From IMG/VR virus record IMGVR_UViG_3300022745_000628, positions 62,001 to 126,000 of that record: a stretch of DNA of 64,000 nucleotides. One strand, written 5' to 3'. This DNA is from a virus. Within the stretch, counting starts at the first letter, position 1. Each line of letters begins with the position of its first letter. A program made the translations under genes and the position numbers. Under the pieces are notes generated by a model. That model searched no databases. It was given only the letters and a program-made list of their open reading frames with translations, and was not told where the DNA came from. Below are positions 2,677 to 25,123 of this stretch, one piece after another.

Positions 2677-3006
2677 ATGGATAAATCGGATTCCGATCAA
2701 GATCTCGAATCGGTCGAGTTGCTGCCAGCGTTCTACTGGATTTGTCAAGAATGCGGTAAAAATCAGTATCAGCATGCTATTCATGTTGAAATGTCGGCGG
2801 AAGACATGCAAGAAGTGTTGGAAGATCTGGGAATCGATATAGCTGAGCAGTTAGGTAGTGGAGAATTTTTGAAGATCCCAACTATCGTAGAATGTAAGGA
2901 TTGCTCCTCGCGTTTTAAAGTAACCTGCCCATTCGTTAAAGACGAACCAGATACGGAAGAAAATGACCAATCCGATGGATCTGCATTTGGGGACTTCTCC
3001 GAATAA
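2677..3006 (+). CDS. Small zinc-ribbon protein, 109 aa
   Basis: It starts two bases after the previous stop. Two CxxC knuckles (C23/C26 in CQEC and C73/C76 in CKDC) sit on either side of a helical, acidic segment, giving a four-cysteine zinc-ribbon arrangement. The tail is acidic. Its 3' end overlaps the start of the polymerase gene by 44 bases in another frame, so the two are probably co-translated. Small zinc ribbons near polymerases can be transcription cofactors, but this is inference from position only. The beta-prime N-terminus encoded next door shows no zinc cluster of its own, so a separate zinc protein beside it is worth noting. Confidence 0.6.
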   Translation: MDKSDSDQDLESVELLPAFYWICQECGKNQYQHAIHVEMSAEDMQEVLEDLGIDIAEQLGSGEFLKIPTIVECKDCSSRFKVTCPFVKDEPDTEENDQSDGSAFGDFSE

Positions 3007-6000
3007 TAATCAACCGTCTGCATTAGACGGTTACGACGGATTAGAGTCGCAAGCACCGGATATTCCAGCTATATCTCCGGAAATTACCGAGAAAGACTTA
3101 CGCGAGTTTGCGCATCCGCAGCAATTGCGTGCCGCTATATATGACAAAACTCTAGCTGCCGCGCAAGCGATCCAGCCTGTGCAAAATAATCGGTACAAGT
3201 TATCTGTCACCGACGTACATTACGCGGATCCAGACCATTTTGATCTAACTAAACAAAAACAAGCGCTATTGTCCGGCGGATCTATTGGCCGAAGACTTCG
3301 CGGTACATGGGTACTAGAAGATGCAGCTGGAAACACTCTCGGAAGCAAAACAACGACTTTGGCACGTATTCCGCATTTGACTGACCGCGGTACGTTCATT
3401 AATAATGCCAACGAGTATTCACTAGTAAGCCAACTGCGGCTACGCCCAGGCATTTACACACGTAAAAAGGCTAACGGTGAAATAGAAGCACACGCTAACG
3501 TAACAAAAGGGCCTGGGCACAAGCTATTTCTAGATCCTAAGACCGGCGTATTCAAGCTAGGCATGCAACAATCCGAAATGCCAGTTGTTACGTTACTTAG
3601 GGCTATGGGTGTTAACGACGCGCAGTTGCGCGATGCTTGGGGTAACGAGCTAGCAGCCGCTAATATGCGCAAAGACGATGCGCAAGTCATTACTAAGCTG
3701 CACAAGAAGCTGGTACACAAGGTTGATCCTGACAAGTCGCCATCAGAGCAGGTAGTCGATGCTTTTCACCGTATGGAGCTGGATCCAGAAGTATCCGCGC
3801 GTACATTGGGACATCCGTACACCAATATGACGTCGGATGCGATACTGGCTACAACCAAAAAACTATTGGCTATTAGCCGTAATGAACAAGAAACGGACGA
3901 TCGCGATGCAATGCCGTTTCAAACATTGCACGGTCCGGAAGACTTATTGGCGGAGCGCTTGTCCAAATCACGCGGCACTATGAATAAGTTGCTGTGGAAA
4001 GCGTCAGCTAAAGGCGAGCTAGGTTCTGGTTTAAGCGGTGCTTTCGATGATGACGTTAAAAGTGCACTACTGACATCCGGGTTAGGTCAAGTGTTGGAGG
4101 AAGTTAACCTCGGTGAAGTGCTGGATCAGCAGAACCGGGTTTCGCGTATGGGTGAAGGTGGTATTACAAGCGGGGATTCGGTTCCTGAAGAGAGCCGTGC
4201 GCTCCATCCCTCACAATTCGGATTTATCGACATATTGCGTACTGCAGAAAGTTCGCGCGCAGGCGTCGATTTACGTCTAGCTAATTCTGTTCGAAAAGGG
4301 CCTAATAATACGCTGTATACCAAGGTTATTGATAGAGCAGGTAATCCTGTTTATCGTAAGCCTATTGCGATTGCCGATTCTGTTTTAGCATTTCCAGGTG
4401 AAATGGAGTCGGATACTCCATACGTTCGAGCCATTAAGAATGGCCGTGTAACTGTAGTAAAACGTGACGACGTGGATTACACAGTGCCGCATATGGAAGG
4501 CACCTTGTCACCTATGGCTAACCTCATTCCAGGCAAGTCAGCGGTTAAAGGTCAAAGACTAGTCATGGCATCTAGAATGATGCAACAAGCCTTACCGCTT
4601 AAAGAGCCTGAAGCGCCATTCGTACAATCTGCTAATCCAGATAAAGATGGCGAAAGCTTTGAAGAGACTTATTCTAAGTTCATGGGCGCAGTGAAAGCTG
4701 ACCAGCGTGGCCGAGTTATGGCTGTATCGCCAGACCATATTGAAGTTAAATACGCCGACGGCGATACTAAAAAAATTGAGCTGGCTAACAATTTCCCGCT
4801 TAATCGTAAGACTATGTACACGCAAACAGCTGCGGTACAACCCGGCGATTTTATACAGCCCGGTCAATTGCTGGCACATTCCAACTTTACAGACAAGCAG
4901 GGTGTTACAGCGTTAGGTAAAAACCTTCGTATAGCGTATATGCCATACGACGGGCGTAATTGGGAAGACGCGGTGGTTATCAGTGAATCGGCTGCTAAGA
5001 AGTTCACGTCTGAGCATGCTTATAAGCACGACCACGAGTTTACAGAGGCCGATAAGCCAGGCCGCGCGCGTTACATTAGTATCTTTCCAGGCAAGTACAA
5101 CAAAGAAACGCTAAGCAAATTTGATGAAAAAGGTGCTATTAAACCCGGTACTACGGTAAAAGCAGGCGATCCGCTGCTGCTTATGGTTTCTGAAAAAGAG
5201 CGCAATAAGAAATCTATGATTCGCGGCAATAAGTCTGTGTTTCAAGATAAGTCGATTCTGTGGGATCACGATTACGATGGACAAGTTACCGACGTAATTC
5301 ATACGCCTAAAGGTATGTCCGTAGTTGTTAAAGCTTATAAGCCCACGCAAGTAGGGGATAAACTTAGTCCCAGATATGGGGACAAAGGCATTATCAGTCA
5401 TATCGTTCCGGACGAACAGATGATACATGACGCTGATGGTAAACCATATGAGATGTTAGTTAGCCCGCTTGGCTTAACATCTCGTATTAATCCAATGCAG
5501 TACGTGGAAAACGCGCTAGGTAAAATTACCGAAAAAACAGGTAAAACCTACAAAATCAAGGATTTTGACGGTAACACAGACTTAGCGCAATATGCCGCAG
5601 ACGAGCTCAAAAAGCACGGGCTTTCTGACACTGAGACGGTGATCGATCCTAGAACCGGTAGAAAAATACCGGGCATTGTGACCGGCAATCGTTGGGTAAT
5701 GAAATTGCATCATATGGCTGCGGACAAGTTACAAGGTCGCGGACTGGGGTCTTACGATGCTACCGGCGCGCCAGCTGGTAAGACTGAAACATCCGACTCG
5801 AGTAAACGGCTTGGGATGTTAGAAGTTAATGCGATAATGTCTTCGGGCGCTACGAATGTCTTGCGAGAGGCGGGGCTATTGCGTGGGCAAGCTAATCCGC
5901 AATACTGGTCGGAATACATGTCCGGACTGGATCCTAAGACGCCAGAAGTCCCGTTTGTATACGACAAGTTTGTTAACATGCTGAAAGCAGCCGGGATTAA

Positions 6001-7444
6001 TCCAGTGCGGAATGGGCCTAAAACCCAGCTTATGGCACTGACAGATGCCGATATAGATAAGTTAGCTGGCAATCGAGAGCTCAAAAATGCTGAGACGGTT
6101 AACTGGAAAGACATGGCGCCGGTGGATGGCGGCTTATTTAGCCAAGATCTAACTGGTGGGCACGGATCCATAGGCGGCGGAGGCGGCTCGAGATGGAGCT
6201 ATATGTCTTTGCATACGCCTTTACCTAATCCTGTAATGGCTGAGCCAATTCGGCGTGTACTTGGTTTAACTAAACCGCAGTTTGAAAATATTATCGCTAG
6301 TAAGGATAGTATTAACGGCGAGACTGGCCCGCAGGCTATTCACAATGCGCTTAAGAAGATTGATGTGACGCGAGAACTTGCGCAAGTACGTGAGCAAATC
6401 AAATCTGGTAAAAAGACCAAGCGCGATGATGCAATTCGTAAAATCGGCTATCTAAAGACTGCTGAACGTTTGCAAATGCATCCGTCTGAATGGATGTTGA
6501 GTAAAGTGCCGGTTATACCGCCTATTTTCAGACCTGTGTCTGTAATGGGCTCGAAAAAACTACCGTTGGTAGACGACGCTAACTATTTGTACAAAGAACT
6601 GTGGGACGCTAACCAGACAGTTAAAAACCTGTCTAAGCATTTAGATCCTAAGGATTATGGCGATGAAATGTTGGCGACTTACAAAGCGTTCCAAGCTGTA
6701 ACGGGTTTAGGCGATCCGTTACAAGCCAAAAATAAAGAGCGCGGCGTTGCCGGCATATTAAAGCATGTACTCGGAGCTGGCGGCCCTAAGTCTAGTATGA
6801 TCCAGCGTAAGTTGCTTGGAAGTACTACTGACTTCGTTACGCGCGGTGTAATTGCACCAAACCCAGATTTACATATGGATCAGGTAGCGCTACCAGAAGA
6901 GCAAGCCTGGGATATGTACCAGCCGATGCTTGTTCGTCGAATGGTGCGTAGCGGTATGAGTAAGATGGATGCGTTGCGAGCTGTCGAGCAAAGACAACCG
7001 GTTGCTAAAAAAGCACTAGACAACGAACTCGAGGACGGCGTTGTGTTGTTCAATCGAGCTCCGACTTTGCACCGTTATGGCATTATGGCTGCAAAGCCGG
7101 TGCTGACTAAAAACAAAATTATCGAATTACCTACGTTCGTTTACGCTGGATTGGGCGCAGACAATGACGGTGATCAGATGAACATCCACGCTTTAACGAC
7201 ACAATCCGCTAAAGATGAAGCCATGGAAAAGATGTTGCCATCGAAGAATTTGTTCAATGTCAGCGAATTCAAGGTGCACCAGCTGCCATCCAAAGATTAT
7301 GTGGCTGGACTGTACGCTGCATCTACTGCACGAGACGACAAGAATCAGGTTATGTATTTTGATAGCCCAGAAGCTGCTATCAGAGCATATAAAGCTGGTC
7401 GAATCGATCTTGGTCGGCGTGTGAAAATATTAGATAAGAACTAA
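2963..7444 (+). CDS. rpoB-rpoC1: Fused RNA polymerase beta / beta-prime N-terminal half, 1493 aa
   Basis: A single chain carries bacterial-type beta and then the first part of beta-prime. Beta signatures in order: TDRGTFINN and VSQL followed by RPGIY (about residues 138-165), HPSQFG (about 415, the place of bacterial HPTHYG), a segment matching NFEDA (NWEDAVVISESA, about 665), VGDKLSPRYGDKG (797-809, canonical GDKxxxRHGNKG) and LGMLEVNAI (about 950, canonical GEMEVWAL). Beta-prime signatures follow: GGLFSQD (about 1055), NRAPTLHRYG (about 1365) and the catalytic magnesium loop ADNDGDQM with D1400, D1402 and D1404 intact. The usual four-cysteine zinc site of the beta-prime N-terminus is not visible. 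The chain stops just after the segment equivalent to GLYYMT...ARVKV in E. coli beta-prime; the rest is in the gene at 10973. No alpha or omega subunit is seen. Confidence 0.95.
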   Translation: MTNPMDLHLGTSPNNNQPSALDGYDGLESQAPDIPAISPEITEKDLREFAHPQQLRAAIYDKTLAAAQAIQPVQNNRYKLSVTDVHYADPDHFDLTKQKQALLSGGSIGRRLRGTWVLEDAAGNTLGSKTTTLARIPHLTDRGTFINNANEYSLVSQLRLRPGIYTRKKANGEIEAHANVTKGPGHKLFLDPKTGVFKLGMQQSEMPVVTLLRAMGVNDAQLRDAWGNELAAANMRKDDAQVITKLHKKLVHKVDPDKSPSEQVVDAFHRMELDPEVSARTLGHPYTNMTSDAILATTKKLLAISRNEQETDDRDAMPFQTLHGPEDLLAERLSKSRGTMNKLLWKASAKGELGSGLSGAFDDDVKSALLTSGLGQVLEEVNLGEVLDQQNRVSRMGEGGITSGDSVPEESRALHPSQFGFIDILRTAESSRAGVDLRLANSVRKGPNNTLYTKVIDRAGNPVYRKPIAIADSVLAFPGEMESDTPYVRAIKNGRVTVVKRDDVDYTVPHMEGTLSPMANLIPGKSAVKGQRLVMASRMMQQALPLKEPEAPFVQSANPDKDGESFEETYSKFMGAVKADQRGRVMAVSPDHIEVKYADGDTKKIELANNFPLNRKTMYTQTAAVQPGDFIQPGQLLAHSNFTDKQGVTALGKNLRIAYMPYDGRNWEDAVVISESAAKKFTSEHAYKHDHEFTEADKPGRARYISIFPGKYNKETLSKFDEKGAIKPGTTVKAGDPLLLMVSEKERNKKSMIRGNKSVFQDKSILWDHDYDGQVTDVIHTPKGMSVVVKAYKPTQVGDKLSPRYGDKGIISHIVPDEQMIHDADGKPYEMLVSPLGLTSRINPMQYVENALGKITEKTGKTYKIKDFDGNTDLAQYAADELKKHGLSDTETVIDPRTGRKIPGIVTGNRWVMKLHHMAADKLQGRGLGSYDATGAPAGKTETSDSSKRLGMLEVNAIMSSGATNVLREAGLLRGQANPQYWSEYMSGLDPKTPEVPFVYDKFVNMLKAAGINPVRNGPKTQLMALTDADIDKLAGNRELKNAETVNWKDMAPVDGGLFSQDLTGGHGSIGGGGGSRWSYMSLHTPLPNPVMAEPIRRVLGLTKPQFENIIASKDSINGETGPQAIHNALKKIDVTRELAQVREQIKSGKKTKRDDAIRKIGYLKTAERLQMHPSEWMLSKVPVIPPIFRPVSVMGSKKLPLVDDANYLYKELWDANQTVKNLSKHLDPKDYGDEMLATYKAFQAVTGLGDPLQAKNKERGVAGILKHVLGAGGPKSSMIQRKLLGSTTDFVTRGVIAPNPDLHMDQVALPEEQAWDMYQPMLVRRMVRSGMSKMDALRAVEQRQPVAKKALDNELEDGVVLFNRAPTLHRYGIMAAKPVLTKNKIIELPTFVYAGLGADNDGDQMNIHALTTQSAKDEAMEKMLPSKNLFNVSEFKVHQLPSKDYVAGLYAASTARDDKNQVMYFDSPEAAIRAYKAGRIDLGRRVKILDKN

Positions 7445-8449: not shown

Positions 8450-9625
8450 ATGTTAATTTCCAGACGTATTGAACTCGATCCAAACAACAAGCAGGTTGGT
8501 CTGTTCCGGCGGCACGCCGGTACAGCTAGGCACGCTTGGAACTGGGGTTTGGCCGAGATCAAGAAGGTCTTGGAAATCCGCAAGGTTGAAAAAGAGCGAA
8601 CTGGCAATGCTGTTACCAAAGTGCCCACCGCGATGGACTTGCACAAACGACTTGTTGCCGAAGTTAAAGTAGCAAACCCTTGGTATTACGATGTTTCGAA
8701 ATGTGCGCCGCAAGAAGCGTTACGCAACCTCGAAAAAGCGTGTAAACGCGTTTTCAAAGTTAAAGGTACTGGGTTTCCTAAATTCAAAAAGCGTGTCAGG
8801 CGTGCTGTATTTGAGTTGACTAATTCTACTTTCAGACGAGCTGGCAAGAAGATTAAGTTGCCGGTTATTGGCTGGATTCGTTGCAAAGAAGCCATCCCGG
8901 CTGACCACGTTATCAAATCAGTGTGTATTAACCAGCGAGCCAATCGTTGGTTTCTGGCTTACAGCTACGAAGTCGAAACCGTTGTCGCCAACGGTCATAC
9001 CGACACAGTAGGTGTCGATCTAGGGCTTAAAACCTTAGCGACATTGTCCAACTGCGAGACCATTGTTCAGCCAAAGCAGCTCAAGCTGCAAAAGAAACTA
9101 GTCAGGTTGCAGAGAAAGCTTGCCCGTCAAAAACGCGGCAGCAACCGACGTAACGTTACCAAGCAAAAGCTTGCAAACGTACATTATCGAATATCTTGTA
9201 TTCGAGCAGATCTAACGCACAAGTTAACTTCACGCTTAGCCAAAAACCACGGCGTAATTGCGATTGAAGACTTGAACGTTCAAGGAATGCTTAAAAACCA
9301 TTGTCTAGCCCGATCTATTGCCAACGCAAACTTTTCGGAGTTTCGAAGGCAGCTCGAATACAAGACTTTACTTTACGGTTCGCAACTCGTTGTTGTCGAC
9401 CGTTGGTTCCCGAGCTCAAAGACTTGTCATGTCTGCCAACATAAGCAGGAAATGCCTTTGTCTAAAAGGGTATTTTGTTGCGAACAATGCGGACAAACGT
9501 CTGACCGGGATTTGAACGCGGCCAAGAACCTAGCAGCGGCCGGCTTGGCCGTTTTAGCGCAAAGAACCCGCAGAGTGGGATCGCTTTGCGAACTAACCAA
9601 AGACGCTACTTGTAGCGTTTTGTAA
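8450..9625 (+). CDS. tnpB: TnpB RNA-guided nuclease (IS200/IS605 family), 391 aa
   Basis: The product has the full TnpB layout: an N-terminal helix-turn-helix/wedge part beginning with the typical RRIELDPN and RHAGTARHAWNW segments, then a split RuvC domain. RuvC residues are intact: D190 in GVDLGLK, E273 in IAIEDLNV and D354 in DRDLNAAKN. A four-cysteine zinc finger (C326, C329, C344, C347) sits between the last two. Length fits the family (about 400 aa). Known TnpB proteins are programmable DNA nucleases guided by an RNA made from the 3' end of the element; I infer the same here because no catalytic residue is missing. The gene has no obvious ribosome site, lies between the two polymerase genes in the same orientation, and has no partner transposase in the window. 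Confidence 0.93.
   Translation: MLISRRIELDPNNKQVGLFRRHAGTARHAWNWGLAEIKKVLEIRKVEKERTGNAVTKVPTAMDLHKRLVAEVKVANPWYYDVSKCAPQEALRNLEKACKRVFKVKGTGFPKFKKRVRRAVFELTNSTFRRAGKKIKLPVIGWIRCKEAIPADHVIKSVCINQRANRWFLAYSYEVETVVANGHTDTVGVDLGLKTLATLSNCETIVQPKQLKLQKKLVRLQRKLARQKRGSNRRNVTKQKLANVHYRISCIRADLTHKLTSRLAKNHGVIAIEDLNVQGMLKNHCLARSIANANFSEFRRQLEYKTLLYGSQLVVVDRWFPSSKTCHVCQHKQEMPLSKRVFCCEQCGQTSDRDLNAAKNLAAAGLAVLAQRTRRVGSLCELTKDATCSVL
9600..9621 (+). terminator. Hairpin at tnpB 3' end
   Basis: ACGCTAC (9603-9609) and GTAGCGT (9612-9618) pair perfectly around a TT loop. The stem extends to ten pairs with A-T and G-T closing pairs, and runs into TTTT. It overlaps the last codons of tnpB. It could be a Rho-independent terminator or the right-end hairpin/guide-RNA scaffold of the element; the sequence cannot separate these. 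Confidence 0.55.
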
Positions 9626-10972: not shown

Positions 10973-13822
10973 ATGTCGCAAGAATTAACTGTCGGGCAAT
11001 TATTAATCGATCAGGCACTACCGCCGTCTATGCGCGGAGTGCCGCGGACGCTAGACGCCAAAGGCGTTAGCGCATTATTCCAGGAATTGGCTGAGCAACA
11101 TCCCGATGCATACCGCGATATAGGTAAAAAGATATCGGATATCGGCAGAGATGCCGCTACCATATCCGGTGGCTTCACAAGCGGTATCGCGCACTTGCAG
11201 CAACCAGAAGCAGCTAAACGAATTCGTAAAGAATTCGATGCTAAACTTCAAGCAATATATGCGCAGCATCTTTCAGAAGATGAGAGAAATAAGCAAGTTA
11301 TTGCACTTGCCGGCACTACGCAACAACAAATGGCGGAAGAAGTATATCAAGAAGCGCTAGCAAATAAAAACCCGATTGCGTTACAAGCAATGACTGGCGT
11401 ACGCGGTAATAAGATGAACGTAAACAGTCTGTTAGGCGCAGACATGTTGTACGCAGACCATAAAAATCAGCCTATTCCCTTGCCGGTTACTAGAAGTTAT
11501 TCCATGGGGTTAACCCCTGCTGAATACATGGCTGGCGCATTCGGAGCGCGAAAAGGGACGGTAGATTTGAAGCTAAGTACCTCTAAAGCCGGGTTTCTTT
11601 GTTTAGATGCAGACACATTAGTGCGTATGGCAGATTTTTCTGTCAAAAAGATCTGTGATATATCTGCCGGTGACATGGTTATGGGGGCAGATTTAAAAGG
11701 TAATTGCTTCCCGAGCCATGTAATCGCGTTGATCGATACAGGTGTAAAACCAGTAAATCGATATGATTTTCGTTATGGAAAATCCAGATCCAAATTTATA
11801 TCGATCACTGGCACTGCTGAACATAAGGTATTAGCACGTAAAAGTACTAGGACAAGATCTAAGAAAGTTCGAGTGTATCCGGACGCAAGCAGGGAAATGG
11901 CTGAGTTAGGTTTATTTGGTAATACCGGCACTACCAAATGTGAATTAGTCGTAGCGCCTCTTGGCGAAGATATGCCGCTAGTAAACTGTGCCTTTCAAAT
12001 GGCCACACCGCTAGAACCAGCACAAACTTACGACATTTGCGTGGATAATCCGGATCATTTGTTTGTGTTGGCTAATGGCGCTATTGTTAGCAACTCCAAA
12101 CAATTGAACCAGATATCCCATCGATTAGTTGTTACAGATACAGACGGCGAAGCTCACGACCCCGAAAATCCGCGCGGTATGCCCGTAGACACGGATAACA
12201 AGTTTAACGCTGGTTCGTTGCTTGCCCACGATGTAGCTGGCTACAAACGAAACCAAATACTCACGCCCAAGATTTTGAAAGATATCAAATCGCAGGGACA
12301 CGACTCTATCTTGGTGCGCAGCCCTATTGTGGGCGGCCCAAAAGATGGCGGAGTTTACGCTTATGACGCCGGCGTGCGAGAACGCGGCGGATTGCCCCCA
12401 ATAGGCGACTTTGTGGGTTTAGCCGGAGCACAGTCAATCGGTGAAATCGCGACGCAAGCGTCTATATCCAGTAAGCACTGCTTAATGGGTGGAACTCTAG
12501 TACGAATGGCCGATTTGTCTGTAAAAGCTATAGAAGACATACGAGTTGGCGACCAGGTGTTAGGCGCCGACATGTTTGGAAAGAGCACGCCAGTCAAAGT
12601 AGTTAACACATTCGACAACGGAGAGCGTGAATGTTCGCAGTTCAAATATCAAAAAGGTGCTTCGGCTATCGAGCTATGCAGTACCGCTGAACACAAAATA
12701 TTAGTCGTTACACCGTACGGTAATGAATTATTGGCTGCCGGGGTGGAGCAAGATCCATTATTTGTAAAACTAGCGGATAGTGATGAAATTTGTGTACAAG
12801 ACTACTCCGTACCGTTAGGAATGCAGCCTACATACGATATTGAAGTAGATCACCCGGATCACTTATTTGTGTTGGCAAACGGATTAATAGTTAGCAATTC
12901 CGGCGGGGTTGTCGGAGCGCAAGCTGGGGCACTAACCGGGTTCCCGTTGTTTAACGCTTTAATACAGGTTCCGGAAGTATTCCCAGGTGGCGCAACGCAT
13001 GCCCAAAACGACGGGCGTGTGACGGATATTCGCCCAGCTCCGCAAGGCGGAACATTTGTAATGGTGGATGGACAAGAACACCATGTGCACAGCAACTTGA
13101 AACCTACGGTTAATCTCCGTGATATGGTTGAAGCTGGTGACGTATTGTCCGAAGGATTGCCTAGCCCCGCAGAATTTGTCAAACATAAAGGTGTAGGCGA
13201 AGGCCGCCGGCAGTTTGTTACGGCATTTTCAAAGGCGCTACAAGAAGCAGGTGCTAAACATAATCGGCGAAATGTCGAGTTGTTAGCGCGCGGAGCTATA
13301 AACCACGTCCGCCTAACTGACGAATACGGTAATTTTTCTCCTGGCGAAGTACATCCGTATCAAACACTTGAAGCTATGTGGGAGCCTAGGGCTGGGTACA
13401 TAGCCGTAAGTCCGGAATCTAGTAAGAATTACTATCTAGAAAAACCGGTATTACATTACACAATCGGCACAAAGATTAAGCCGTCGATGATTGCCGAAAT
13501 GAAGAAGTACGGGGTTAAGCGCGTAATAGCCCACTCGGAGCCGCCTCCGTTTGAACCAGAAATGATTCGAGGTATGGCGTCGGTATCAGAAGATCCAGAC
13601 TGGATGACCAATATGTTCGGATCTTATCAAAAATCCAGCTTGTTAGACGCCGTGCACAATTCAAGAGAATCTGATGAATCCGGTACCAGTTACATACCAG
13701 CGCTAGCGCATGGTAAAACGTTCGGGATCTCTGGAGCAACAAAAGGTTGGAATCCAAAGGAATCGCCGATTAAACCGCCGGATTTTACACAACCGAAAAC
13801 TGTGTTAGACGATTGGGACTGA
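10973..13822 (+). CDS. rpoC2: RNA polymerase beta-prime C-terminal half with two inteins, 949 aa precursor
   Basis: This completes the beta-prime left unfinished by the fused gene at 2963. It begins with LTVGQLLIDQALP, matching the TTVGR...LP segment that follows the break point in E. coli beta-prime, so the two chains abut without loss. Other motifs: SGGFTSGI (about residue 63), trigger loop GARKGTVDLKLSTSKAGFL (191-209), and GAQSIGEIATQ (485-495) leading to SGG (643 on). Both of the last two motifs are interrupted by inteins (residues 210-374 and 503-642); removing them leaves a 644-residue protein. The C-terminal part has RRNVELLARGAINHVRL and GEVHPYQTLE, like the end of beta-prime. No Shine-Dalgarno site is visible; the ATG lies five bases after a TAAAATA box. 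Confidence 0.93.
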   Translation: MSQELTVGQLLIDQALPPSMRGVPRTLDAKGVSALFQELAEQHPDAYRDIGKKISDIGRDAATISGGFTSGIAHLQQPEAAKRIRKEFDAKLQAIYAQHLSEDERNKQVIALAGTTQQQMAEEVYQEALANKNPIALQAMTGVRGNKMNVNSLLGADMLYADHKNQPIPLPVTRSYSMGLTPAEYMAGAFGARKGTVDLKLSTSKAGFLCLDADTLVRMADFSVKKICDISAGDMVMGADLKGNCFPSHVIALIDTGVKPVNRYDFRYGKSRSKFISITGTAEHKVLARKSTRTRSKKVRVYPDASREMAELGLFGNTGTTKCELVVAPLGEDMPLVNCAFQMATPLEPAQTYDICVDNPDHLFVLANGAIVSNSKQLNQISHRLVVTDTDGEAHDPENPRGMPVDTDNKFNAGSLLAHDVAGYKRNQILTPKILKDIKSQGHDSILVRSPIVGGPKDGGVYAYDAGVRERGGLPPIGDFVGLAGAQSIGEIATQASISSKHCLMGGTLVRMADLSVKAIEDIRVGDQVLGADMFGKSTPVKVVNTFDNGERECSQFKYQKGASAIELCSTAEHKILVVTPYGNELLAAGVEQDPLFVKLADSDEICVQDYSVPLGMQPTYDIEVDHPDHLFVLANGLIVSNSGGVVGAQAGALTGFPLFNALIQVPEVFPGGATHAQNDGRVTDIRPAPQGGTFVMVDGQEHHVHSNLKPTVNLRDMVEAGDVLSEGLPSPAEFVKHKGVGEGRRQFVTAFSKALQEAGAKHNRRNVELLARGAINHVRLTDEYGNFSPGEVHPYQTLEAMWEPRAGYIAVSPESSKNYYLEKPVLHYTIGTKIKPSMIAEMKKYGVKRVIAHSEPPPFEPEMIRGMASVSEDPDWMTNMFGSYQKSSLLDAVHNSRESDESGTSYIPALAHGKTFGISGATKGWNPKESPIKPPDFTQPKTVLDDWD
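11600..12094 (+). other. Mini-intein 1 in the beta-prime trigger loop, 165 aa
   Basis: It starts at Cys210 (block A CLDADTLVRM) and ends at Asn374, followed by extein Ser375. Block B is GTAEHK, and blocks F and G are TYDICVDNPDHLF and LANGAIVSN. The residue before the terminal Asn is Ser instead of the usual His. There is no LAGLIDADG or other endonuclease domain, so it is a mini-intein. The insertion splits the trigger-loop sequence between AGFL and SKQLNQ, equivalent to the SGYL/TRRL junction of E. coli beta-prime. Splicing by cysteine at position 1 and serine at +1 fits class 1 chemistry. Confidence 0.92.
12479..12898 (+). other. Mini-intein 2 after the AQSIGE motif of beta-prime, 140 aa
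   Basis: It starts at Cys503 (block A CLMGGTLVRM) and ends at Asn642, followed by extein Ser643. Block B is STAEHK, and blocks F and G are TYDIEVDHPDHLF and LANGLIVSN, again with Ser before the final Asn. It is clearly paralogous to the first intein (shared LVRMADxSVK, GDxVxGAD, PDHLFVLANG). No endonuclease domain is present. The insertion lies between SSKH and SGGV, equivalent to the highly conserved TFHTGG stretch of bacterial beta-prime. Confidence 0.92.
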
Positions 13823-13927: not shown

Positions 13928-16177
13928 ATGCCCCTTCAAAAGAAACTGGCGTTCAACCTAAATACCAATGGTAATACCGGGTTTGAACAATCCTTCGCAA
14001 ACCTGGCTCATGCGTACCTGAAAGATGCTGCTCCTAGTCTGATGGACCATGAGCTGGGTTTTCAATTACTGGACACCAACGAAGAAAACACTCGCGCAGT
14101 CGGTGTTTTTGGATTCATGGTGGGCTCTCAGGTGCTATACGCACCGGTATTTTTCTTAAACGGCGACTTGAAAGGTAACGAGCTACTGTACGTTAAGTCC
14201 AATGATATGTTCACGCCGCTGAAAGAAGGCTGGCTGCAATATATTATGAACCGTAAGCCTCAATCGCTGGGAGAGCCTGGAGACCCGTCGTCTATTAATC
14301 CGTCAATCCGTCGACCGGATTTGAGTCAGTTCTATCAAACACCTGGAAAAATCGCTAGCCACGTAGCAGACTTCGCTATTGAGTTCTTGCCAAGCTACGC
14401 AGCGATCACGACAGCTGAATTTGCGAAAGAAGCTGAGGATCTTCGCGGGCTGATATCTGAGAAGTTCAATCTCGATCGATTTATGAAGTCGGCGAGCTCA
14501 GACGATCTTAAAGTGCTTTGTGACACACTGGAATCAAATTCGACGATTGCCGGACGATTCGCCGAATGGTACGGTTTTGACAAGTTGGCGGAAGCTGTCA
14601 AGCGTGCTAAGCAAGACGAGACCCAGCCATCGGCGTTGGATTTGCCAGATATTTCCAATCCAGACCTGTTCTTCGAACCAAGCAAATTGGATGTCTATTT
14701 GGACGTAGACAGCATGCCTGGCGACGCAACGGATCCAGAAAAGGAATATTTCTACTCTCATAACATATTGGTACGAGATAACCGTAAAGTTGAAGAGCAC
14801 GCCAAAGTTCTGGACGAAAGTTCGGATATCAAACTGAGCAATCCAAACTCTACCGGTAAATACCAAGTTCTGGATAAAACTGGCTTGACCGTAGAACGCG
14901 TTGTGCTCAGCCGACCGATCGGACCTAACTCGGTTACTGAAAAGGTGGCTATCCTCGATCCAAGCGGCGACGTACGCTTGGTCTTTAAGCGCGACGCGGT
15001 GTTTGTGGTTAACGATGGAAAAGACGCTCAGAAGGCATTTTCAGACTGGTGGGCCACTGTCGGTTCTAACAGCGTAGATCGTAACAGTACGTATATTGCC
15101 GTTACAAAAGACGGCGTATCTAGCATTCCGTTTGTTATCGAGCGTTCGCTCGGCAAGGCTGCCGACGGCTCGTCTGCTTATGAGATCTCGTTCAAAGGTT
15201 CGGAATCCTGGGATACCTACGACAGCTCTACAAAAAGCAAGGATGGTCAGCGATTTGTAAGTAACAATTCTCGAGAGTACCTGTATATCGGCTCGAAAGC
15301 CGATTCCAAGCTGCACGTACATGAAGGATCGATATACGCGCCGGCGCAAGCTAAATTCATTAAAGTTGATCCGTATCCTGACAGCGATGCGTTTGTACCT
15401 GGCGATATTCACGACGCGCAACGACGATTGCAGCGTGGAACTATCAAGGTGAAAGCTACCCGCGACGCAAATCGTTATGCCATCGACGGACAAGAAATGG
15501 TTTCCAAACAAGCTGCACTTAAGACTTTGGTGCTTAAGTACCGCTTAGGATTTGATTCGGCTAAAGATGTATTGTCCAAGTTGGCTACCGCGGCTCCGAG
15601 AGCTAACTATGCTTTCCGGATCAAACTAGCTGATCCGATGTTGACCGATAACGCGCAACATTCGTTTGGCGTGGACTTTACCCCGCAAACTGACCGTAGC
15701 ACGAACTTCATGAATTTCCAAGGTAGTATGGCTCCGTCCAGCGAGCAGCGCAGCACAATTTCAGAATTGTCCGGTGCCAACTCGGATTTGTCCGGATACA
15801 ACATTTTGACAGAAGGTCGCAACGCAGTTAAGAGCTACGTGCAAAATGCTGCGGATCGTGGAGATAAAGACATATTCGATGTCGGTATGCTATCGTCGTT
15901 GCTTAAGGCAGTTAAGGATGACATGATCATCGATCAATACATCCCAGACCTGATGAAAGCAATGGATAAACTCGGCCGGCTGTTATTCCAATATTATTGG
16001 CATTACGACAAGTTTTCGGCGAGGTTCGGCAAGTCAGATATGCCAGAATTGGAAGACGCTTTGCGTAACAGTTTCGAAATGTTGTCGGAAGTTATACTGT
16101 TCTTGAAGAACAAGACAATCGATCCGTACGCTGAAAACGACACTCCAGACATTTCCCTTAACACATCGGCTGCTTAA
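13928..16177 (+). CDS. Large unrecognised virion-type protein, 749 aa
   Basis: It is the first gene of the head module. The N-terminal third is mixed and helical, with a GVFGFMVGSQVLYAPVFF segment near residue 60 that is hydrophobic but reads as a folded core rather than a clear membrane helix. The middle is beta-rich and the C-terminal 120 residues are helical. Lysine codons are mainly AAG, as in the capsid and sheath genes, suggesting high expression. By position a portal protein would be possible, but I see no portal-specific feature and the length is unusual, so I leave it unassigned. Its N-terminus (MPLQKKLAFNLN) carries a Lys-Leu-Ala element like other head-module proteins. Confidence 0.75.
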   Translation: MPLQKKLAFNLNTNGNTGFEQSFANLAHAYLKDAAPSLMDHELGFQLLDTNEENTRAVGVFGFMVGSQVLYAPVFFLNGDLKGNELLYVKSNDMFTPLKEGWLQYIMNRKPQSLGEPGDPSSINPSIRRPDLSQFYQTPGKIASHVADFAIEFLPSYAAITTAEFAKEAEDLRGLISEKFNLDRFMKSASSDDLKVLCDTLESNSTIAGRFAEWYGFDKLAEAVKRAKQDETQPSALDLPDISNPDLFFEPSKLDVYLDVDSMPGDATDPEKEYFYSHNILVRDNRKVEEHAKVLDESSDIKLSNPNSTGKYQVLDKTGLTVERVVLSRPIGPNSVTEKVAILDPSGDVRLVFKRDAVFVVNDGKDAQKAFSDWWATVGSNSVDRNSTYIAVTKDGVSSIPFVIERSLGKAADGSSAYEISFKGSESWDTYDSSTKSKDGQRFVSNNSREYLYIGSKADSKLHVHEGSIYAPAQAKFIKVDPYPDSDAFVPGDIHDAQRRLQRGTIKVKATRDANRYAIDGQEMVSKQAALKTLVLKYRLGFDSAKDVLSKLATAAPRANYAFRIKLADPMLTDNAQHSFGVDFTPQTDRSTNFMNFQGSMAPSSEQRSTISELSGANSDLSGYNILTEGRNAVKSYVQNAADRGDKDIFDVGMLSSLLKAVKDDMIIDQYIPDLMKAMDKLGRLLFQYYWHYDKFSARFGKSDMPELEDALRNSFEMLSEVILFLKNKTIDPYAENDTPDISLNTSAA

Positions 16178-24196: not shown

Positions 24197-25123
24197 ATGG
24201 CTACACAAGAACAAATCGGTGTAATGAACCGCACGTTTCTTGATACGATCGAATCCGGTCAGTACAAGAAGGCCGCGGATGCCGTTACCGATTACACTCG
24301 AACGAAGTTGCGTGAAGAAGGATTCTTCCGCAAGATTATGCCACCGATCCAAGTAGACGACAGTCAACTTGATCGACAAGTTAGTGATCCACGACCTGTG
24401 ATCATCATCGACCGTCAGGCCGAAAGTGGTCCAGCCGTAACCATTCCTTTCGCGACGACCCCACGTAATATGTGGATCAAGGGACCGCGATACATGGTTG
24501 CTTTCAGCCGTATCATCACCCCACAGTTCCAAACAGATAAGGATTATCTGCGAACGTGGCATATGGACATCCGTCAATTGGTCTCCGACCAAGCGATCCG
24601 CGATATCGGTACTGAAGAAGATACCAAGTTTATTTCGGCTGTTAACTCGGTCATGGTCGGCGCAGATCAAGCGGTTCCAGCTAACAACAACGTTGTTCAG
24701 TGGAAGACGATTCCAGGCGGAATCACCCGCGACGCGATCAAGTCTGCTAAGGCAATCATGCGAAAGGGGCCTTCGAAGCTCTCCGCTGAAGTTGCTTTGG
24801 TTAACCACGTTACTATTCTCGAGTTCGAAGCGTTTGATCGTAACGAAATCGGTGGTGACTTGGCACAAGACATTTTCAAGAATGGCTTCGCCGAGAAAGA
24901 AATTTTCAACCTCAAGTTGTTCGCAACGATCAAGGACACGCTTGTTCCTGACGATTCGATGTACTTGTTTGCGGATCCAAAGTTCATTGGAAAACACTTC
25001 GTTCTCGAAGATGTTACCATGTACATGGAGAACAAGGCATTCATGCTTTCGTTCTTCGCATACCAAACTACTGGTGCTGCAATCGGGCACACCGGCGGCT
25101 TGGCTCGCGCTGACTTCGCATAA
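24197..25123 (+). CDS. Major capsid protein (HK97-fold type), 308 aa
   Basis: A strong GGAGGAA site precedes the ATG by about 12 bases. Length and order (protease, scaffold, decoration, this gene) fit a major capsid protein. The sequence shows an N-terminal helical arm, then a mixed alpha/beta body with segments such as RPVIIIDRQAESGPAVTIPF and YMVAFSRIITPQF, like the E-loop and P-domain strands of short HK97-fold capsid proteins, and a C-terminal beta-rich part. By my reading about 19 of 21 lysine codons are AAG, against mostly AAA in tail genes, as expected for the most abundant protein. It contains YKKAAD near its N-terminus, a possible processing or docking motif. Confidence 0.78.
   Translation: MATQEQIGVMNRTFLDTIESGQYKKAADAVTDYTRTKLREEGFFRKIMPPIQVDDSQLDRQVSDPRPVIIIDRQAESGPAVTIPFATTPRNMWIKGPRYMVAFSRIITPQFQTDKDYLRTWHMDIRQLVSDQAIRDIGTEEDTKFISAVNSVMVGADQAVPANNNVVQWKTIPGGITRDAIKSAKAIMRKGPSKLSAEVALVNHVTILEFEAFDRNEIGGDLAQDIFKNGFAEKEIFNLKLFATIKDTLVPDDSMYLFADPKFIGKHFVLEDVTMYMENKAFMLSFFAYQTTGAAIGHTGGLARADFA

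What the first reader, a model, noticed from the sequence alone, without database searches (positions are those of the whole stretch)
11600..12898. Two paralogous mini-inteins in the catalytic core of beta-prime, with potential cross-splicing
Both inteins lack endonucleases, both begin with Cys and end in Ser-Asn followed by Ser, and share blocks A, B, F and G closely. They sit in the trigger loop and just after AQSIGE. Because the N-terminal half of one resembles that of the other, intein 1's N half paired with intein 2's C half could splice out the 128 residues between them, giving an inactive or altered product. The polymerase can only work after splicing, so splicing is a possible control point on phage transcription.
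Basis: partly seen in the sequence, partly recalled or inferred. Interest (0 to 1): 0.85.

Follow-up and report, generated by a model that had tools for sequence, protein, structure and literature searches.

The report
Twin inteins in phage RNA polymerase
A large bacterial virus carries two self-removing protein inserts (inteins) inside the two moving parts of its own RNA polymerase's active centre, and related viruses carry the same kind of insert at about ten closely packed positions in those parts, so the enzyme should work only after the inserts cut themselves out.

Summary
Sequence, conserved splicing residues, AlphaFold/Foldseek and gapless intein-free homologues all support ordinary class 1 mini-inteins. 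One label was wrong. Intein 1 interrupts the bridge helix (E. coli beta' L796|T797). Intein 2 interrupts the trigger loop immediately after the catalytic histidine (H936|I937).

The larger result was outside the window. Among 113 distinct beta'C ORFs, 25 carry 36 related inteins at about 11 junctions. [quoted passage not shown] Genes carry up to three inteins, with exteins of 5-9 residues between some neighbours; 17 inteins keep a LAGLIDADG-sized insert. Relatedness tracks insertion site rather than genome, and intein-free relatives 85-86% identical exist. This fits a mobile family rather than duplication inside this gene.

Cross-splicing is chemically conceivable but unsupported. A regulatory 'control point' has no positive evidence. 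A distant relative's beta and beta' are abundant in virions, so splicing may mature a packaged polymerase (inference). Splicing itself is untested.

The parts
10973..13822 (+). beta'C ORF (949 aa precursor): C-terminal part of a bacterial-type multi-subunit RNA polymerase beta' subunit with two in-frame inteins
   Evidence: Pfam RNA_pol_Rpb1_5 E 1.6e-13 and NCBIfam rpoC E 3e-38; 113 distinct family ORFs incl. window
10973..11599 (+). N-extein (209 aa), ends in the bridge helix ...ARKGTVDLKLSTSKAGFL
   Evidence: gapless alignment to intein-free homologues and to E. coli RpoC 767-796
11600..12094 (+). intein 1, mini-intein, 165 aa, site BH209 (bridge helix; E. coli after L796)
11600..11602 (+). 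intein 1 Cys1 codon (block A nucleophile)
   Evidence: Cys in 36/36 family members
11813..11824 (+). intein 1 block B T-A-E-H (TxxH)
   Evidence: T and H in 36/36
12026..12094 (+). intein 1 blocks F/G TYDICVDNPDHLFVLANGAIVSN, terminal Asn
   Evidence: TIGR01443 intein_Cterm above cut-off; terminal Asn 36/36
12095..12478 (+). middle extein, 128 aa; +1 Ser at 12095; ends in trigger loop ...AQSIGEIATQASISSKH (catalytic His equivalent last)
12479..12898 (+). intein 2, mini-intein, 140 aa, site TL337 (trigger loop; directly after the E. coli H936 equivalent)
12479..12481 (+). intein 2 Cys1 codon
12683..12694 (+). intein 2 block B T-A-E-H
12830..12898 (+). intein 2 blocks F/G TYDIEVDHPDHLFVLANGLIVSN, terminal Asn
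   Evidence: TIGR01443 above cut-off
12899..13819 (+). C-extein (307 aa), +1 Ser
2963..7444 (+). partner subunit: fused beta plus beta' N-terminal part (1493 aa) with catalytic DxDGD motif (GADNDGDQM)
   Evidence: 30.6% identity over 97% to Salmonella phage Arash gp206

Best explanation
Both inserts are class 1 mini-inteins that lost their homing-endonuclease domain. They belong to a mobile intein family that has repeatedly settled in the two moving elements of the active centre of this phage polymerase family. The 949-aa precursor is translated with both inteins. Each folds locally into a Hint domain and splices by the standard route: Cys1 N-S acyl shift, transfer to the +1 Ser, Asn cyclisation helped by block B (TxxH) and block F His, then O-N shift. 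This restores a continuous bridge helix (AGFL-SKQL) and trigger loop (SSKH-SGG) in a 644-aa mature beta'C. SHOWN by sequence: position, boundaries, complete splicing residues, predicted fold, gapless empty-site homologues, a site-wise family with endonuclease-bearing alleles, presence/absence between close relatives. INFERRED: that splicing happens, that it is cis and independent for each intein, and that the unspliced enzyme is inactive. The sites are probably favoured because they are conserved homing targets and because an insert there can be lost only by exact deletion. By analogy with Arash virions, the spliced enzyme may be packaged for use at the next infection (weaker inference).
For: Boundaries and residues: (Cys1, block B Thr and His, terminal Asn 36/36; block F His 35/36; +1 S/T 36/36). 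Fold. Npu DnaE intein, also ending SN, aligns with intein 2. Empty-site gapless alignments. E. coli mapping. Site clustering; about 2e-8 against S/T/C-capable junctions if sites are taken as independent. Full-length ~380-aa alleles at the same two sites (L168/L051 at 209; L048, L028, L153 at 337). Close empty/full pairs L028-L019 85%, L048-L076/L066 86%. Site-wise relatedness. Single beta'C in the record. Structural-gene neighbourhood shared with Arash, MCP homologue at 24197-25123; Arash beta and beta' among the most detected virion proteins (PMC10585845).
Against: No protein data. The penultimate residue is Ser instead of the usual His, although active Npu DnaE has the same. Intein trees are poorly resolved (few starred branches). 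The Pfam intein-splicing model PF14890 itself gives no hit in the record, and Hint profiles score near their cut-offs on the single inteins. Arash is only about 28% identical in beta'C, so its virion data may not transfer.
Confidence: 0.9

Rival explanations
1. Conditional splicing: the two inteins act as a (double) lock that delays polymerase activity until a signal or assembly/packaging step releases splicing.
For: Both moving catalytic elements are interrupted; endonuclease-free inteins are kept (19 of 36 in the family are mini). M. smegmatis DnaB carries two inteins in one protein with different rates and redox response (PMC6195587). Intein 1 has several extra cysteines.
Against: Sporadic presence; relatives about 85% identical lack the intein; most relatives in the extein-based scan have none (4 of 32 loci carry inteins). 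The -1 residues are Leu and His, so no -1 Cys redox trap. No conserved regulatory feature seen.
Confidence: 0.08
2. Cross-splicing: intein 1's N half pairs with intein 2's C half and removes the 128 residues between them as well.
For: C-terminal 23 residues 20/23 identical. Domain-swapped inteins can give alternative protein splicing in engineered cases (Aranko 2013, as cited in PMC8175363).
Against: Each intein is contiguous, complete and predicted to fold with high confidence on its own; intein 1 is fully translated before intein 2. Eight relatives also carry two or three related inteins, some 5-9 residues apart. The product would lack everything between bridge helix and trigger loop, so no benefit is evident.
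Confidence: 0.03
3. The inserts are retained as structural domains (like lineage-specific beta' insertions such as SI3 in the E. coli trigger loop) and are not spliced.
For: RNA polymerases do tolerate large domains in the trigger-loop tip (established knowledge, SI3).
Against: Splicing residues essentially invariant across 36 members; insertion breaks helices rather than the loop tip; sporadic empty sites without gap; same family occupies about 11 different junctions always before S/T.
Confidence: 0.04
4. Recent duplication inside this gene produced the second intein from the first.
For: Shared TLVRMAD..SVK and YDI.VD.PDHLFVLANG..IVSN; one-clade test not rejected (p-AU 0.074, 0.19).
Against: DNA similarity limited to a 68-bp stretch at 75%; same-site inteins of other phages are the best matches; labels follow site, not genome.
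Confidence: 0.08

Closest known systems
Mycobacteriophage terminase (TerL) inteins, seven insertion sites in the ATPase domain (PMC5050341)
   Same: Phage enzyme with inteins at several conserved active-centre sites; empty and full alleles; splicing-competent and endonuclease-bearing forms
   Different: Host protein is a terminase; here RNA polymerase beta' with about 11 junctions, ten in two 14-residue stretches, and up to three related inteins in one gene
Inteins of eukaryotic and viral RNA polymerase second-largest subunits (RPA2/RPB2/RPC2; PMC1635734)
   Same: Multiple non-allelic inteins in RNA polymerase, all near the active cleft
   Different: Those sit in the beta-like subunit, are mostly not closely related to each other, and come from eukaryotes and their viruses; here the beta'-like subunit of phages and one related intein family
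M. smegmatis DnaB inteins DnaBi1/DnaBi2 (PMC6195587)
   Same: Two inteins in one essential protein, one a mini-intein
   Different: The DnaB inteins differ in sequence and splicing mechanism; here both are class 1 and homologous
Npu DnaE intein (PDB 4kl5, 2keq)
   Same: Hint splicing fold; ends Ser-Asn; best structural match of intein 1 and best sequence match of intein 2 in the PDB
   Different: Naturally split, in DNA polymerase III alpha; low sequence identity (21-28%)
TerL with two inteins in a crAss-like phage (PMC7886860)
   Same: Two in-frame inteins in one phage gene
   Different: Hint-Hop type in terminase; zeta crAss-like RNAP genes are disrupted by stops and frameshifts, a different situation

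Membership tests
Class 1 intein | N-terminal Cys/Ser/Thr nucleophile at intein position 1 | tested here: met
   Cys1 in both and in 36/36
Class 1 intein | Block B TxxH | tested here: met
   TAEH in both; T and H 36/36
Class 1 intein | C-terminal Asn and +1 Cys/Ser/Thr | tested here: met
   N|S at both sites; N 36/36, S/T 36/36
Class 1 intein | Penultimate His in block G (usual, not obligatory) | tested here: not met
   Ser in both and in 33/36; same as Npu DnaE, an accepted class 1 intein, so not an excluding feature
Class 1 intein | Hint splicing fold | tested here: met
   AlphaFold pLDDT 95.8/90.9; Foldseek best hits are inteins
Class 1 intein | In-frame insertion in a conserved site with intact, gapless empty-site homologues | tested here: met
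Class 1 intein | Protein splicing activity | not testable with these tools
   needs expression/mass spectrometry
Mini-intein | No homing endonuclease domain | tested here: met
   165 and 140 aa, no LAGLIDADG/HNH; same-site relatives of about 380 aa have LAGLIDADG motifs
Class 3 intein | Lacks N-terminal Cys/Ser, uses block F Cys (WCT) | tested here: not met
   Cys1 present in 36/36; no WCT motif seen in the alignment
Bacterial intein-like (BIL) domain | Not in conserved catalytic sites; no conserved +1 nucleophile | tested here: not met
   conserved sites, +1 S/T always
Split intein | Two separate ORFs | tested here: not met
   single ORF

The most novel reading that the evidence does not exclude
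Probability: 0.07. Interest if true: 0.88.

Novelty: new variant of a known kind. Interest (0 to 1): 0.6.

Why it matters
Inteins are known to prefer conserved sites, and non-allelic inteins in one gene are usually not closely related. Here one related family occupies about 11 junctions of one gene, ten packed into the two elements that move during every nucleotide addition, with up to three per gene and exteins of five to nine residues between some neighbours. That offers a natural system to ask how inteins move to new sites close by, how neighbouring homologous inteins avoid mispairing, and whether splicing delays a phage polymerase. The family also supplies many new natural Cys1/+1 Ser mini-inteins of 126-178 aa, a useful size for protein engineering.

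Tried and rejected
The search for related loci with the unspliced precursor found nothing because its patterns fell in divergent stretches; the intein-free alignment solved this. Pfam PF14890 gave no hit in the record, so that curated intein model alone would miss these. A tree of 17 beta'C inteins suggested that all trigger-loop inteins form one clade; with 36 inteins this was rejected (p-AU 0.0016), so I do not claim two clean lineages. Gene conversion between inteins of one gene was looked for: within-genome similarity (N block 0.435, C block 0.656) is not above same-site between-genome similarity (0.445, 0.675). Other insertions of 40 aa or more inside beta'C were searched for and none remained after excising these inteins. 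Conservation alone does not explain the sites: windows around 413-442, 464-473 and 519-527 are as conserved but empty. Paper searches found no report of inteins in a phage beta' bridge helix or trigger loop; the library holds open-licence papers only.

Full report
WHAT IS THERE. The window is bases 62001-126000 of a 193,796-base virus record. ORF 10973-13822 encodes 949 aa that match the C-terminal part of bacterial RNA polymerase beta' (Rpb1 domain 5, TIGR02386). The partner ORF 2963-7444 (1493 aa) is a fusion of beta and the N-terminal part of beta', with the catalytic motif as GADNDGDQM. Both start with Cys, have TAEH (block B), a TYDI.VD.PDHLFVLANG..IVSN C-terminus and a following Ser. They are 39% identical to each other (E 4e-30). 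At DNA level only 68 bp (75%) align, so recent copying is not visible.

ARE THEY INTEINS? Pfam gives Hint-type matches: intein 2 passes Hom_end_hint; intein 1 is below cut-off alone, while the whole protein passes with two Hint stretches. TIGR01443 (intein C-terminus) passes for both. AlphaFold with an alignment of relatives gives pLDDT 95.8 (intein 2) and 90.9 (intein 1). Foldseek's best PDB matches are the Mtu RecA intein splicing domain and the Npu DnaE intein. The unusual Ser-Asn end is shared with the Npu DnaE intein (alignment). With the inteins taken out, the extein aligns without a gap across both junctions with intein-free homologues, including Salmonella phage Arash and Vibrio phage D181 at site 1 and the closer relatives at both sites.

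WHERE EXACTLY. Alignment with E. coli RpoC is gapless across both junctions. Intein 2 lies directly after the equivalent of H936 in AQSIGEPGTQLTMRTFH|IGG, the trigger loop with its catalytic histidine (element names from established RNA polymerase knowledge; their coupled role in the nucleotide addition cycle: PMC2776397). So each of the two moving elements of the active centre is interrupted once.

THE FAMILY. Scans of IMG/VR and GTDB contigs gave 113 distinct beta'C ORFs including the window; 25 contain 36 inteins. In window-extein numbering the junctions are 196/197, 200, 201 and 209 (bridge helix), 324, 328, 333, 334 and 337 (trigger loop), and one at 356; some neighbouring numbers could be one site because of alignment. 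Ten of these 11 junctions lie in 28 residues out of 644. Counting only positions where the family often has S/T/C, 9 of 66 candidate junctions lie there, giving about 2e-8 for 10 of 11 if junctions are independent, which they are not fully. Equally conserved stretches elsewhere are empty. Catalytic residues are nearly invariant: Cys1, Thr and His of block B and terminal Asn 36/36, block F His 35/36, +1 Ser/Thr 36/36. Nineteen are mini-inteins (126-178 aa); 17 are 373-418 aa, most with recognisable LAGLIDADG motifs, including alleles at both window sites (209: L168; 337: L048, L028, L153). The window's mini-inteins therefore look like endonuclease-deleted forms. Genes L023 and L024 have three inteins, and neighbours are separated by exteins of 8 (L023), 9 (L024) and 5 (L184) residues. 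In a scan whose patterns lie upstream of all sites, 4 of 32 loci carried inteins. Scans with intein queries favour intein carriers, so 25 of 113 is not a frequency.

HISTORY. The best match of each window intein is the intein at the same site in another phage (209: L023; 337: L043), although for intein 1 the margin over its neighbour is small (99 vs 94 bits). On a 36-intein tree, exact-site labels need 17 changes against 25 (minimum 21) when shuffled; genome labels need 30 against 31. Inheritance by site dominates, with some moves between sites and elements (6 changes). Holding the two window inteins together costs likelihood but is not rejected (p-AU 0.19; 0.074 on the smaller set). Trees are weakly supported. 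Relatives 85-86% identical differ in having or lacking an intein (L028/L019 and L048/L076), the mark of a mobile element.

HOW IT MOST LIKELY WORKS. Each intein should fold by itself and splice by the standard class 1 route. The 644-aa product then has a continuous bridge helix and trigger loop. Only one beta'C copy exists in the record, so if this polymerase works, splicing should be required; this is inference. The beta'C gene lies in a block of genes homologous to Arash structural genes, with the major capsid protein homologue at 24197-25123. In Arash, beta (gp206) was the most detected virion protein and beta' (gp216) among the top five; its authors note carry-over as an alternative (PMC10585845). 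A packaged, previously spliced polymerase is thus plausible in this family, at 26-31% identity.

CROSS-SPLICING AND CONTROL. The two C-terminal blocks are 20/23 identical, so mispairing is chemically conceivable, and domain-swapped inteins have produced alternative splicing in engineered form (Aranko 2013, as cited in PMC8175363). Against it: each intein is whole and compact, intein 1 is complete before intein 2 is made, and several relatives live with two or three homologous inteins very close together. The regulatory idea has a precedent in the two DnaB inteins of M. smegmatis (PMC6195587). Here it has no positive evidence, and sporadic occurrence argues against dependence on it.

NOVELTY. 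Multiple non-allelic inteins are known in eukaryotic RNA polymerase second-largest subunits (PMC1635734) and in phage terminases (PMC5050341). I found no report of inteins in a phage beta' bridge helix or trigger loop, nor of one related family filling about ten neighbouring junctions; the search was limited to open papers. I therefore rate it a new variant of a known kind.

Noticed in passing
window 8450-9625 (+): TnpB-like RNA-guided nuclease gene (NCBIfam TnpB E about 1e-80; Pfam OrfB_IS605, Cas12f1-like_TNB) lies between the two RNA polymerase ORFs; no Rfam hit nearby.
   Followed up: partly
G000:54196-55449 (L010 ORF 10001-12313): A third intein in the same phage: 418 aa with LAGLIDADG, starts CSRKG, ends ISN|C, in a protease-like protein.
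   Followed up: partly
L010:13210-15006: Probable fourth intein (CHDDQTEVLT ... ISGN|C, LAGLIDADG_3 match) in another protein of the same phage.
   Followed up: no
L010:9330-9974; L018 and L132 just downstream of beta'C: Hint-like stretches lacking the Cys nucleophile (ASGTLVTMCDG..., LTAETAILLDDFS...), possibly degenerate or repurposed Hint domains.
   Followed up: no
L023:1050-2252 and 3519-5300; L011:3102-4412: Relatives carry further, different in-frame intein-like inserts in the beta/beta'N ORF, one in L023 right beside the catalytic DFDGD motif, so L023's polymerase may contain five inteins.
   Followed up: partly
L171-L179 (contigs up to 459 kb): Huge-phage loci where an intein C-terminus (TYDLEVDHPDHQFYLANG..TSN|SHS) starts a separate ORF with DnaE-like sequence: candidate naturally split inteins.
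   Followed up: no
L170:2-1594: A terminase-like protein (SGKSS motif after the junction) with a C-terminal intein block 75% identical to this family: the family may have reached TerL.
   Followed up: no
L013-L016, L024, L046, L051/L168: beta'C is fused in frame to a long C-terminal extension in these relatives (ORFs of 1200-2254 aa), while in the window the next ORF 13928-16177 is separate.
   Followed up: no
L060 ORF from 1181 (2109 aa): One protein with three other inteins, two of them separated by short exteins.
   Followed up: no
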